Part shown: positions 34,535-41,978 of the stretch, piece by piece
How positions within the stretch are numbered: position 1 is the stretch's first letter
How the letters are laid out: each line of letters begins with the position of its first letter
Source of the DNA: Anaerolineae bacterium
Lineage (GTDB): Bacteria > Chloroflexota > Anaerolineae > Aggregatilineales > UBA3940
Length of the DNA: 64,000 nt
NCBI GenBank assembly: GCA_016926255.1
Contig: JAFGOY010000033.1
Span: 1 to 64,000 of the forward strand
Direction of reading: 5' to 3'
Position numbers and translations under genes: made by a program
The notes under the pieces: model-generated
Told to the model about the DNA's origin: nothing
What the model saw: only the letters and a program-made list of their open reading frames with translations
Databases searched by the model: none

Positions 34535-36061
34535 ATGGTATTTGAACAAGAACTCGATCTCCTGATTCGCTCCAACTATCCCATTATCTACATCCCGACC
34601 CCTGAGGAAGAGCGCGCCGAGCAGTTGATCGCGCGGGTGGCCGAAAAAGGGTCGCCGTCTCGCCGTCTGCATACCTGGGACTATATCTCCGGCTTCGAAG
34701 ACGGTGCTGGTCGGATCAACCCCTTGCAGGCGATAGATGAGATCATTAAATTCCAGAGCGATCTCCCGGCGGTTTTCGTCATGCGTGACTTTCACCGTTT
34801 CCTTGAAGATGTCCAGGTATCCCGCAAGATCAGGAACCTTTCCCGCCATCTTCAAAATACCCGCAAGACCATGATCATCCTTGCCCCCACGCTCTCCATT
34901 CCTGCCGATCTTGCCGAAGATATCACTGTCCTTGACCTCGTTCCACCCACGCCGGACGAGATCGATGCGGAACTTGATGCAGTATTGGAAAACGTTCCGG
35001 TGCAGTTGTCGCCGGGGAGCAGGGAGGCGCTGGTCAAAGCCTGTCAGGGTTTGACCATGAACCGCATCCGCCTGGGTCTTGCCCGTGCGATTGCTCTCTA
35101 TGCCCGTCTTGATGAACGGGCAATTCCCCTGATGCTCGCCGAGAAGAAACAGCAGATTCGCCGCACCGAAGTCCTGGAGTTCTGGCCCGTTACCGAAACC
35201 GTCGATGATATCGGCGGGCTGGACATTTTGAAGATGTGGCTCAACCAGCGGTCGGCAGCCTTTACCACCGAAGCCCGCGAATATGGTCTGCCCCACCCGA
35301 AAGGCGTGCTGCTGGTCGGTATTCAGGGCACCGGTAAATCGCTCTCGGCGAAAGCCATTGCCAGCCTGTGGCAGCTTCCCCTCCTTCGTCTTGATATTGG
35401 CCGCCTCATGGGTGGACTGGTCGGCCAGAGCGAAGCCAAGACCCGTGAGATGATCCATATCGCCGAGGCGATGGCCCCCTGCGTCCTGTTTGTCGACGAA
35501 CTGGATAAAGGTTTCGCCGGGCTGGGATCGGGGTTTGTTGGTGATTCGGGTACGACGGCCAGGGTGCTGGGTACGATCCTCACCTGGATGGAGGAGAAGA
35601 CCTCCGCCGTCTTCATCGCGGCGACGGCTAACGCGGTCGAGACGCTCCCGCCGGAGGTGCTCCGCAAGGGCCGTTTTGACGAGATATTCTTCATCGATCT
35701 TCCCAGCGAGCGCGAGCGCCGCGAGATATTCGAGGTCCATCTCTCGAAAGTCCGTGAGAACCGCCTGCGCGAGTTCGATCTCGGCGAACTGGCTTTTCAG
35801 AGCGAAGGCTTCAACGGCGCGGAAATCGAGCAGGCCATCGTCGACGCGATGCACACGGCTTTCGACGAGCGCCGTGAATTCCAGACTGAGGATATCCTGA
35901 TAGCAATGTCGCAGATTGTCCCGCTCAGCAAAACCTCGCAGGAGCGCATCCGTAATCTGCAAGAGTGGGCGGCCAGTGGCCGCTGTCGCCCGGCCAGCAC
36001 CGACGCGGCCCAGGCCGGTCTGATGGGCCAGCTTTTCGGGAATGCCGGTCTGCCGAGCTAA
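34535..36061 (+). CDS. Ycf46-like AAA+ ATPase
   Basis: N-term domain DLLIRSNYPIIYIPTPEEERAEQLI; Walker A GIQGTGKS, Walker B CVLFVDELDKGF, arginine-finger region EVLRKGRFDEIFFIDLPSERERREIF. Confidence 0.88.
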   Translation: MVFEQELDLLIRSNYPIIYIPTPEEERAEQLIARVAEKGSPSRRLHTWDYISGFEDGAGRINPLQAIDEIIKFQSDLPAVFVMRDFHRFLEDVQVSRKIRNLSRHLQNTRKTMIILAPTLSIPADLAEDITVLDLVPPTPDEIDAELDAVLENVPVQLSPGSREALVKACQGLTMNRIRLGLARAIALYARLDERAIPLMLAEKKQQIRRTEVLEFWPVTETVDDIGGLDILKMWLNQRSAAFTTEAREYGLPHPKGVLLVGIQGTGKSLSAKAIASLWQLPLLRLDIGRLMGGLVGQSEAKTREMIHIAEAMAPCVLFVDELDKGFAGLGSGFVGDSGTTARVLGTILTWMEEKTSAVFIAATANAVETLPPEVLRKGRFDEIFFIDLPSERERREIFEVHLSKVRENRLREFDLGELAFQSEGFNGAEIEQAIVDAMHTAFDERREFQTEDILIAMSQIVPLSKTSQERIRNLQEWAASGRCRPASTDAAQAGLMGQLFGNAGLPS

Positions 36062-36117
36062 ATCATTCCAATGATTTATTTGCGGTATAATACACTTATC
36101 GGGTACTGAAGTGATGT

Positions 36118-36148
36118 TGAGGTGACCCTGATAGTTCACCTCAGGAGG
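36118..36148 (+). promoter_or_regulatory. Hairpin abutting the Shine-Dalgarno of the DUF1257 gene
   Basis: tgaggtga-N10-tcacctca then AGGAGG (36143-36148), ATG at 36156; TATAAT at 36086-36091. Confidence 0.5.
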
Positions 36149-40112: not shown

Positions 40113-41053
40113 TCGTCGTGGCCGGTAAATCGGATCACCCATCCCGCGATCCCCGTCTCTGGGCAGCGCTGATCGGCAGTGACCGTCAGCGTCGCCTTGA
40201 TGCCGCCCGAACGGTTCGCGCCCTCCAATCCGAGGCGTGGTATGCCCGACAGCTTCTCGAATCGATCGCCGTGATCGGGCCTGAGCGCCGGGCCGATCTC
40301 GGCGAAGCCCTATCGCTGCTGGGTGATTATCGCTTTTCACCGCCTTATTATCTCTCCGAAATGCTCCCCGTCTCGTCCGCTGTTGCCATTCTTGGCAGTC
40401 CCGATTATCCCGACGAGCAGCCAGTACACAAAGTCGAAGTCTCTGGTTTTTCGCTTGCCCAGTTCCCGGTGACTAATGTTGCCTATGCGGTCTTTATCGA
40501 AGAGACGGGTTGCCGTCGCCCTTATGGATGGAGCAGGAGCGGCCCGCCGCCGCACTTGTTGAATGCTCCCGTCGTTCGCGTTTCGGTGCGTAATGCCGAA
40601 GCCTACTGTGCCTGGATCAGCCGCGAAACCGGCTTTCGTTTCCGCCTGCCCACCGAAGCCGAATGGGTGATCGCCGCACGTGGAGCCGACAACCCACGCA
40701 AATATCCCTGGGGTGATGAATTCGATCCCCTGTGCGCGAATGTGTGGACTGGCCCCGAATCGTCTCGATTATCGGCGGTAGGCATGTTCCCCGCCGGGCG
40801 CGGCCTCTTCGGCCACGAAGATTTGGCCGGGAATGTCTGGGAGTGGTGTTCGTCACTCTACTGGCCTTATCCTTACCACGCTGCCGATGGCCGTGAAGAC
40901 CCTGGTTCTGACCGTGACTGGCGGGTGATGCACGGCGGATCGTGGCGCAGTCGCCCGATCTCGGTGCGTTGTTCGGCCCGCCAGGGTGAACTTCCCTCCG
41001 ACAGCTTCGAAGTGGTCGGCTTCCGGCTGGCACGGGACGAGTCGCGTGGTTAA
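40109..41053 (+). CDS. SUMF1/FGE-fold domain protein
   Basis: FSLAQFPVTNVAYAVFIEE..RLPTEAEWVIAARG..YPWGDEF..DLAGNVWEWCSS..VMHGGSW; TTG start overlaps the preceding TGA. Confidence 0.85.
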   Translation: MIVVAGKSDHPSRDPRLWAALIGSDRQRRLDAARTVRALQSEAWYARQLLESIAVIGPERRADLGEALSLLGDYRFSPPYYLSEMLPVSSAVAILGSPDYPDEQPVHKVEVSGFSLAQFPVTNVAYAVFIEETGCRRPYGWSRSGPPPHLLNAPVVRVSVRNAEAYCAWISRETGFRFRLPTEAEWVIAARGADNPRKYPWGDEFDPLCANVWTGPESSRLSAVGMFPAGRGLFGHEDLAGNVWEWCSSLYWPYPYHAADGREDPGSDRDWRVMHGGSWRSRPISVRCSARQGELPSDSFEVVGFRLARDESRG

Positions 41054-41978
41054 TCCTCGCCCCGAACCCGCCTATCTTGCTCTTCATCGATCGGGTGAAC
41101 TTGAGGCCAGGGTCGAGCAGGCCGCCGCTACCCTGCGCGACTGCCGGCTCTGCGGTTGGAACTGCGGCATCGACCGTTTGTGTGAGGCCGGTCCCTGCCA
41201 CACGGGCATGGCGGCTTCCGTCGCCACGTCATATCTCCACATGGGCGAAGAACGCCCGCTTGTGATCGGCGGCGGCTCAGGGGCGATCTTCTTTTCCAAT
41301 TGTGTCCTTCGCTGCCAGTACTGCCAGACCTACCGCTGGAATATCAAAGGCCAGGGTCGCGAATTGACCGTTCCCCAGATCGCCGACCTGATGCTCGATC
41401 ACCAGCGCAGCGGCGCTTCGAATATCAATCTTGTCACCCCGATCCATGTTCTCCCGATGATCCTCGCCGCGTTGAATATCGCCGCCTCTGATGGGCTGTG
41501 GCTCCCTCTTGTCTGGAACAGCAGCGGCTACGAAGCCCTGTCGGCCCTGAAATTGCTCAACGGGATCGTCGATATTTATCTGCCCGATATGAAATACGCT
41601 GATGATGAACTTGCCCATCGCCTGAGCGGAGTCGAAGATTATGTGACCGTAAACCGGCAGGCCGTCTCGGAAATGTATCGCCAGGTTGGGCATCTCCAGA
41701 CCGATCCATCCAGTGCAGCTTATCGCGGCTTGCTGATCCGCCACCTGGTGCTGCCCGGCTGTTTTGAGAATACGTCAGAAGTCCTCCGCTGGATCGCCGC
41801 CAGCCTGGGGCCGTTCACCTCTCTCAGTCTCATGGATCAATACCGCCCGGCCTACCGCGCCCGTGCTAATGAATCCCTTGGCGCTGCCCTGTCACCGGCA
41901 GAATATCAACGGGCGCGTGATTTCGCTTTGCAGCTTGGATTGACCCGCCTCGCCAGTTCGTCTGCAACCGGTGGCTGA
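41046..41978 (+). CDS. PflX-like (COG1313-type) radical SAM protein
   Basis: CRLCGWNCGIDRLCEAGPCHTG; CVLRCQYC (CxxxCxxC); GTG start overlaps the SUMF1 gene stop. Confidence 0.85.
   Translation: MVNPRPEPAYLALHRSGELEARVEQAAATLRDCRLCGWNCGIDRLCEAGPCHTGMAASVATSYLHMGEERPLVIGGGSGAIFFSNCVLRCQYCQTYRWNIKGQGRELTVPQIADLMLDHQRSGASNINLVTPIHVLPMILAALNIAASDGLWLPLVWNSSGYEALSALKLLNGIVDIYLPDMKYADDELAHRLSGVEDYVTVNRQAVSEMYRQVGHLQTDPSSAAYRGLLIRHLVLPGCFENTSEVLRWIAASLGPFTSLSLMDQYRPAYRARANESLGAALSPAEYQRARDFALQLGLTRLASSSATGG

What the first reader, a model, noticed from the sequence alone, without database searches (positions are those of the whole stretch)
34535..41978. Collinear AAA+/Ycf35/DUF2997/GrpE/Hsp70/pseudo-receiver/SUMF1/radical-SAM cassette: candidate undescribed chaperone-centred system
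Nine same-strand genes sit tightly packed, with start/stop overlaps at 36748, 40109 and 41046. They combine a Ycf46-like AAA+ ATPase, a Ycf35-like DUF1257 protein, DUF2997, a small acidic protein, a GrpE-like exchange factor, an Hsp70-like ATPase, a degenerate receiver+HEAT protein, a SUMF1-fold protein and a PflX-like radical SAM enzyme. The sequence shows the order, overlaps and motifs. From general knowledge, Ycf46/Ycf35-type proteins come from cyanobacteria and plastids and lack a clear biochemical role. That they work with a dedicated Hsp70/GrpE pair as a remodelling or protein-modification machine is inference.
Basis: partly seen in the sequence, partly recalled or inferred. Interest (0 to 1): 0.85.

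Follow-up and report, generated by a model that had tools for sequence, protein, structure and literature searches.

The report
Peptide-tagged chaperone system with Ycf46/Ycf35
A set of bacterial genes that includes two long-unexplained algal chloroplast gene families (ycf46, ycf35) travels together with its own Hsp70 chaperone in several bacterial phyla, and the proteins it seems to serve share a short double tag at their front end, which gives a concrete way to find out what these mystery genes do.

Summary
The nine genes are real, and their order and domain calls are confirmed. The linkage is not accidental. AAA+ (Ycf46-type), DUF1257, DUF2997, a divergent GrpE and a short lid-less Hsp70 lie together in three phyla: Chloroflexota (two distinct clades), Cyanobacteria and Planctomycetota. 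SUMF1 and the radical SAM enzyme are peripheral. The SUMF1 lacks the formylglycine-enzyme cysteines, and its cyanobacterial counterparts are themselves tagged. The radical SAM type changes between lineages.

It is G-x-E-P-x-L-G-G in the window's order, and DAVLGG...AVLGG in cyanobacterial cassettes. The tag follows the cassette across genomes in both phyla. The same double GxEPxLGG tag sits on Fed7, the ferredoxin encoded beside Ycf35 and DUF2997 in cyanobacteria (14 of 14 loci read). Published two-hybrid data link Fed7 to a DnaJ protein, and algae fuse the two.

Most likely this is a dedicated Hsp70/GrpE-AAA+ remodelling machine, with DUF1257 and DUF2997 as adaptors, that finds its clients by the tag. 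Cyanobacterial Ycf46, Ycf35, Fed7 and an orphan Hsp70 would be a dispersed version. Tag recognition and remodelling are inferred, not shown.

The parts
34535..36061 (+). AAA+ ATPase, Ycf46-type; Walker A GIQGTGKS and Walker B FVDE intact
   Evidence: Pfam AAA 4e-28, AAA_lid_3; 52-56% identical to cyanobacterial Ycf46; sister to cyanobacterial class I Ycf46, support 97/96; motifs
36156..36530 (+). DUF1257 (Ycf35-type) small protein; M-S-H-F-T N-terminus invariant in 48 relatives
   Evidence: Pfam 2e-21; alignment A7; AlphaFold model pLDDT 89, no PDB fold match at E<=0.001
36548..36751 (+). DUF2997 small protein with one invariant Cys (C29)
   Evidence: Pfam 2e-19; invariant G15 G26 C29 T33 E37 in 43 relatives; beta-beta-alpha model, pLDDT 74
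36748..36954 (+). small acidic protein; first hairpin resembles DUF2997; fused to GrpE in a relative
   Evidence: conserved in 7 genomes; hhalign to DUF2997 probability 89 over 16 columns; fusion in L015
36979..37635 (+). divergent GrpE, second in this genome
   Evidence: Pfam GrpE 6e-8; canonical GrpE lies at C35
37656..39302 (+). short Hsp70: intact ATPase domain, about 155-residue C-terminal beta-type domain, no helical lid
   Evidence: Pfam HSP70 8e-31, DnaK-type match ends at residue 390; cross-phylum alignment; separate from DnaK, support 100/100
39324..40112 (+). tagged client: two N-terminal GxEPxLGG copies, pseudo-receiver, HEAT repeats
   Evidence: Response_reg 4e-12, HEAT_2 3e-7; tag
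39351..39374 (+). tag copy 1, GNEPYLGG
39396..39419 (+). tag copy 2, GFEPALSG
40109..41053 (+). SUMF1/FGE-fold protein without FGE catalytic cysteines; probable client or binding module
   Evidence: FGE-sulfatase 3e-46; best PDB match ToxD 7spq; tagged SUMF1 relatives
41046..41978 (+). radical SAM protein (PflX-like), CX3CX2C present; peripheral partner restricted to this family
   Evidence: Radical_SAM 2e-5; replaced by NrdG-type in L027, L028, L114, L116, L117

Best explanation
The core (AAA+, DUF1257, DUF2997, GrpE, short Hsp70) is a dedicated ATP-driven chaperone machine. It recognises its own clients by a tandem N-terminal peptide, with the short proteins DUF1257 and DUF2997 acting as adaptors between tag, AAA+ and Hsp70. 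The clients are scaffold, sensor or binding proteins (HEAT, pseudo-receiver, SUMF1, WD40, pentapeptide, GUN4, LRV) and, in cyanobacteria, the iron-sulfur protein Fed7. The machine loads, remodels or takes apart assemblies of these proteins, probably in response to redox or iron stress. Shown here: conserved gene linkage in three phyla; co-occurrence and proximity of tag and cassette; the same tag on Fed7 beside Ycf35 and DUF2997. Shown by others: Fed7 binds a DnaJ protein in a two-hybrid test and is needed under oxidative, metal and iron stress (PMC4284462). Inferred: tag recognition, the adaptor role, and the remodelling direction.
For: 1) Linkage: cassette in the window's family; other Chloroflexota L027, L028, L117 and Planctomycetota L114, L116; Cyanobacteria L093, L112 and L205-L214. 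2) Tag in Chloroflexota: 56 pattern hits in 10 genomes (window's family plus G013) against 49 in 51 order relatives; the reversed control gives 0.5-0.65 per genome; rank test p=9e-6. 3) Tag in Cyanobacteria: strict pattern in 8 of 11 genomes with the cassette Hsp70 (one of the 11 only a fragment) and 2 of 108 without, those 2 being VFGG look-alikes; p=9e-9. Tagged ORFs lie within about 17 kb of the cassette Hsp70 in all eight. 4) The same double GxEPxLGG tag on Fed7 next to DUF2997-Ycf35, 14 of 14 loci read. 5) AAA tree: the window's AAA is sister to class I Ycf46 (97/96); both lineages use GxEPxLGG, while the separate class II uses DAVLGG. 6) Fed7-DnaJ interaction and algal DnaJ-Fed fusions that bind HSP70B (PMC4284462, PMC3564930, PMC6006212).
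Against: No protein-level evidence of tag binding. In cyanobacteria class I Ycf46 is not beside Fed7, so pairing that tag with that AAA is indirect. The DUF1257 tree does not resolve the deep pairing (p-AU 0.32 and 0.21). No J-protein is in the cassette. The clade of Anaerolineales and Planctomycetota shows no clear tag, only an LLGG-like stretch before the HEAT part of some proteins. Genomes are related, so the p-values overstate independence.
Confidence: 0.58

Rival explanations
1. The tag is a homotypic assembly or docking peptide that gathers HEAT, WD40 and SUMF1 proteins into one large scaffold or condensate. The Hsp70 and AAA+ only help these repeat proteins fold and do not read the tag.
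For: Most tagged proteins are repeat scaffolds. The peptide usually comes in two copies, which suits multivalent assembly.
Against: Fed7, a small ferredoxin with no repeat domain, carries the same tag. Tag and cassette co-occur more tightly than a general folding role predicts.
Confidence: 0.2
2. This is an immune or conflict switch like the MoxR-vWA (VMAP) ternary systems: the chaperone core holds effectors and sensors in check and releases them on a threshold signal.
For: The effector list overlaps that of cyanobacterial VMAP systems (HEAT, pentapeptide, beta-propeller, FGS/SUMF1, GUN4; PMC7159879). Hosts include filamentous cyanobacteria. SUMF1 clients vary in number.
Against: No PADLOC hit beyond AAA similarity to IetA and two trivial matches. 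In the window's family the cassette sits between housekeeping genes (sucCD, MaoC pair) at a conserved place, unlike a defence island. The Fed7 arm is universal and tied to redox and iron stress (PMC4284462).
Confidence: 0.12
3. The tag is a substrate for covalent change: the radical SAM enzyme modifies it, or it is cut after Gly-Gly, and the chaperones present it.
For: A radical SAM gene lies in the Chloroflexota and Planctomycetota versions. The tag ends in Gly-Gly. DUF2997 has an invariant Cys.
Against: Radical SAM genes were not seen in the cyanobacterial cassettes that carry the tags, and their type changes between lineages. The SUMF1 protein lacks FGE catalytic cysteines.
Confidence: 0.07
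4. The adjacency is accidental: unrelated housekeeping genes in one stretch.
For: Flanking genes are also syntenic within the family, so family synteny alone proves little.
Against: The same five families are adjacent in three phyla with different flanks and in different orders.
Confidence: 0.02

Closest known systems
Cyanobacterial/plastid Ycf46, Ycf35 (DUF1257) and the conserved DUF2997-ycf35-fed7 cluster ('cluster g', PMC4284462)
   Same: Same protein families; the AAA is sister to class I Ycf46; DUF1257 and DUF2997 adjacent in both; the same double GxEPxLGG tag, there on Fed7
   Different: In cyanobacteria the genes are dispersed and no Hsp70/GrpE sits with them; here all are in one operon-like run with a dedicated Hsp70/GrpE; no tagged ferredoxin was found in the window
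HscA/HscB-IscU specialised Hsp70 system (LPPVK motif; from general knowledge)
   Same: A dedicated Hsp70 that reads a short peptide on a client tied to iron-sulfur biology
   Different: HscA does not use GrpE or an AAA+ partner; a different peptide, here doubled and N-terminal; clients here are mostly repeat scaffolds
DnaK/GrpE-ClpB disaggregase pair (from general knowledge)
   Same: Hsp70 plus exchange factor plus an AAA+ ATPase
   Different: One Cdc48/Ycf46-type AAA domain instead of ClpB; short lid-less Hsp70; genome has a separate canonical GrpE; specific tagged clients
MoxR-vWA (VMAP) ternary systems and GAP1-N2 systems with HSP70-GrpE (PMC7159879)
   Same: Chaperone-type NTPase core with HEAT, beta-propeller, pentapeptide, FGS and GUN4 partners in cyanobacteria; one subset has HSP70 and GrpE
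   Different: No MoxR, vWA or GTPase here; DUF1257/DUF2997 core; the paper's text does not mention any ycf gene
Algal/plant DnaJ-Fed fusion proteins CDJ3-5 (PMC3564930, PMC6006212)
   Same: Join a Fed7-like iron-sulfur domain to an Hsp70 partner
   Different: J-domain is fused instead of encoded apart; no link to Ycf46 or Ycf35 described in the passages read

Membership tests
Ycf46-type AAA+ ATPase | Full-length similarity including the N-terminal domain, and grouping with Ycf46 in a tree | tested here: met
   52-56% identity over about 490 residues; sister to class I Ycf46, 97/96
Ycf35 / DUF1257 | PF06868 over its cut-off | tested here: met
   76.5 bits against cut-off 22.2; its own sub-clade, not inside the Ycf35 clade
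Canonical DnaK system | Hsp70 with full substrate-binding domain and lid, partner DnaJ nearby | tested here: not met
   548 residues, DnaK match ends at about 390, clade apart from DnaK, no DnaJ in the cassette
Formylglycine-generating enzyme (FGE/SUMF1) | Two catalytic cysteines near the C-terminus (GGS-x-x-C-x4-C) | tested here: not met
   Window reads GGSWRSRPISVRCSAR; only a later Cys remains (sequence; motif from general knowledge); best PDB match is ToxD
Response regulator receiver | Phospho-acceptor Asp and conserved Lys | tested here: not met
   Asp replaced by Thr and Lys by Leu in the window; acceptor Asp absent in four relatives (read)
Glycyl-radical enzyme activase (PflA/PflX) | CX3CX2C cluster motif and a glycyl-radical partner enzyme | tested here: inconclusive
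   CVLRCQYC present; only weak PflA-type hits; no glycyl-radical enzyme in the run
IetAS anti-phage system | IetA over cut-off plus subtilase IetS | tested here: not met
   IetA/IteA 81 bits against cut-off 510; no protease in the run
MoxR-vWA ternary (VMAP) systems | MoxR AAA+ and vWA protein | tested here: not met
   No vWA or MoxR domain among the nine
Photosynthesis-specific machinery | Host has a reaction centre | tested here: not met
   No Photo_RC (type II reaction centre) in 7 cassette-bearing Chloroflexota genomes; type I centres not tested
HscA-type specialised Hsp70 | Binding of a defined client peptide | not testable with these tools
   needs binding assays

The most novel reading that the evidence does not exclude
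A previously undescribed, peptide-addressed Hsp70-AAA+ system spread over several phyla, in which swappable N-terminal double tags (GxEPxLGG, DAVLGG) assign different client sets to paralogous Ycf46/DUF1257 machines, and whose dispersed form in cyanobacteria and red-algal plastids is the true function of Ycf46, Ycf35, DUF2997 and Fed7.
Probability: 0.4. Interest if true: 0.93.

Novelty: categorically new. Interest (0 to 1): 0.86.

Why it matters
ycf46 and ycf35 are kept in red-algal plastids and cyanobacteria, yet no biochemical role was found for them in the papers read. This work ties them to a short Hsp70 and its exchange factor, gives a peptide that probably marks their clients, and names Fed7 as a ready client with a known stress phenotype. 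That turns an old open question into simple binding and knock-out tests in Synechocystis. If the tag is read by the AAA+ or its adaptor, it would be a new kind of address label for a bacterial chaperone, and tagged proteins could be listed in many genomes by sequence alone.

Tried and rejected
DUF1257 alignments were too variable for the genome-contig scan; the AAA was used instead. A literature search for the tag (VLGG, EPELGG) found nothing. PDB fold search gave no match at E<=0.001 for DUF1257 or DUF2997; the weak 6ner sequence hit for DUF1257 (E 0.001) was taken as chance. SUMF1 as a formylglycine enzyme was rejected for lack of both cysteines. Radical SAM modification of the tag was disfavoured because cyanobacterial tagged cassettes show no such gene. 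A photosynthesis-only role was rejected. Defence membership was rejected. The homolog search with a tagged SUMF1 N-domain listed almost only SUMF1 proteins of Nostocales, so it did not widen the client list. The DUF1257 tree could not resolve which paralogue pairs with which. The 573-residue minus-strand ORF over the AAA gene was taken as spurious.
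Full report
WHAT IS THERE. The nine ORFs are on the + strand at the stated places. Pfam confirms AAA, DUF1257, DUF2997, GrpE, HSP70, receiver plus HEAT, FGE-sulfatase and Radical_SAM; the fourth ORF has no family but is conserved in relatives. The AAA has intact Walker motifs. The Hsp70 has an intact ATPase domain followed by about 155 residues and no lid. 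The receiver lacks its acceptor Asp. The genome holds a canonical GrpE elsewhere (160.9 bits, against 32.8 here), so this pair is an extra one. None of seven cassette-bearing Chloroflexota genomes has a type II reaction-centre protein. Relatives named by sources as Aggregatilineales suggest the host's order; this is inference.

LINKAGE. DUF2997 occurs in 7 of 9 genomes of the family and in one of another family (G013). Where contigs are long enough the order AAA-DUF1257-DUF2997-acid4-GrpE-Hsp70-(HEAT proteins)-SUMF1-radical SAM is kept (L010, L012, L015; L014 with no GrpE recognised). Neighbouring sucCD and MaoC genes are kept too, so family synteny alone is weak evidence. The stronger evidence is outside the family. 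In other Chloroflexota, L027 has AAA-HEAT protein-Hsp70-DUF1257-DUF2997-NrdG-type radical SAM-HEAT/WD40 protein; L028 is similar and L117 too. Planctomycetota L114 has DUF1257-DUF2997-radical SAM-AAA-DUF1257-HEAT/WD40-GrpE-Hsp70, and L116 nearly the same. Cyanobacteria L112 and L205-L208 have [tagged proteins]-AAA-DUF1257-DUF2997-GrpE-Hsp70, with other arrangements in L093, L209, L210 and L213. The shared core is therefore AAA, DUF1257, DUF2997, GrpE and Hsp70 (GrpE was not recognised in L027, L028 and L117). SUMF1 beside a PflX-like radical SAM was seen only in the window's family.

THE TAG. HEAT, receiver-HEAT and SUMF1 proteins of the window's order begin with G-x-E-P-x-[LI]-[GS]-G, usually twice, 11-17 residues apart. 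The window's receiver-HEAT protein has GNEPYLGG and GFEPALSG. A second tagged protein lies elsewhere in the same genome (HEAT repeats, L131). The DNA pattern gives 56 hits in ten genomes (the family plus G013) and 49 in 51 order relatives, with a reversed control of 0.5-0.65 per genome (rank test p=9e-6). Two family genomes without a DUF2997 hit (G004, G005) are only 65% and 75% complete. In cyanobacteria the tagged proteins begin YDAVLGG-x(6-8)-AVLGG-[IL]-x-G-V-K-x-R-L and carry HEAT plus SUMF1, GUN4, WD40 or pentapeptide repeats; some class II AAA proteins carry a copy themselves. Among 119 cyanobacterial genomes the strict pattern hits 10. Eleven genomes have the cassette-type Hsp70 (181-257 bits, one only a 78-bit fragment, against 106-159 for the common paralogue). 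Eight of those eleven are tag-positive; the two other positives read VFGG and are look-alikes (p=9e-9). A ninth (L213) has the tag in a spelling the pattern misses. The tagged ORFs lie within about 17 kb of the Hsp70 in all eight.

THE LINK TO FED7. Every one of 14 cyanobacterial genomes read has DUF2997 next to Ycf35, followed by Fed7 ('cluster g' of PMC4284462). In all 14, Fed7 begins with the double tag, for example RSGLEPELGGxxRDxPERSGLEPELGGxxRQKG; in some the first copy is varied. One further genome (G534, L258) shows a single copy. The tag of the Chloroflexota scaffold proteins is thus on the ferredoxin encoded beside Ycf35. Fed7 binds a DnaJ protein in a two-hybrid test, and its loss lowers tolerance to oxidative, metal, salt and iron stress (PMC4284462). 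Algae fuse a J-domain to a Fed7-like domain, and those proteins bind HSP70B (PMC3564930, PMC6006212). Loss of plastid ycf35 and ycf46 in red algae has been related to habitat iron (PMC5940233). The tag and its link to Ycf46 and the short Hsp70 were not found in the open literature searched; subscription journals were not covered.

TREES. The window's AAA is sister to cyanobacterial class I Ycf46 (97/96); cyanobacterial cassette AAAs (class II) and the clade of Anaerolineales and Planctomycetota are separate (100/100 each). So the lineage closest to class I shares the GxEPxLGG tag with Fed7, while class II goes with DAVLGG. Cassette Hsp70s and a widespread cyanobacterial orphan of about 530 residues form a clade apart from DnaK (100/100). 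The DUF1257 tree has five clean sub-clades but does not resolve their order.

MECHANISM. Shown: linkage, tag, co-occurrence. Inferred: DUF1257 and DUF2997 act as adaptors; the AAA+ and Hsp70 remodel tagged clients; the trigger is redox or iron state. DUF2997 keeps one Cys in all 43 relatives and DUF1257 keeps MSHFT in all 48, consistent with binding or redox roles but not proof. Structure models gave no known fold at E<=0.001.

VERDICT. The unit lies outside every described system that was tested here; its parts are known, its composition and tag are not. 'Categorically new' refers to the system as a whole and rests on open-access literature only; if a specialist counts it as a tag-reading Hsp70-AAA+ pair, 'new variant' would be the alternative label.

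Noticed in passing
L031 (also L034, L036, L037): Ycf46-like AAA with lost Walker B plus DUF1257-like protein beside UvrD, DnaG-type primase, SSB and a phage integrase: an integrated-element version in other Chloroflexota.
   Followed up: partly
L235-L244: Cyanobacteria carry a further AAA-DUF1257 pair (class III) away from Ycf35 and the cassette; no tag or partner known.
   Followed up: partly
L185-L204: Most non-Prochlorococcus cyanobacteria sampled have an orphan ~530-residue lid-less Hsp70 of the cassette type.
   Followed up: partly
L214; G528: Cassette Hsp70 decayed to a fragment (G536) or with stop codons (G528), suggesting loss of the system in some cyanobacteria.
   Followed up: no
L114 8766-9155 and 11534-11941: Two different DUF1257 genes flank the AAA in one Planctomycetota cassette.
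   Followed up: no
L153 1063-2268: A receiver-tag-HEAT-receiver protein has the double tag internally (from about residue 147), so the tag need not be at the very N-terminus.
   Followed up: no
window 36748-36954: The small acidic protein's first hairpin resembles DUF2997, and it is fused to GrpE in L015.
   Followed up: partly
L017: A second, diverged DUF2997 in G013 lies next to an NrdG-type radical SAM gene away from the main cassette.
   Followed up: no
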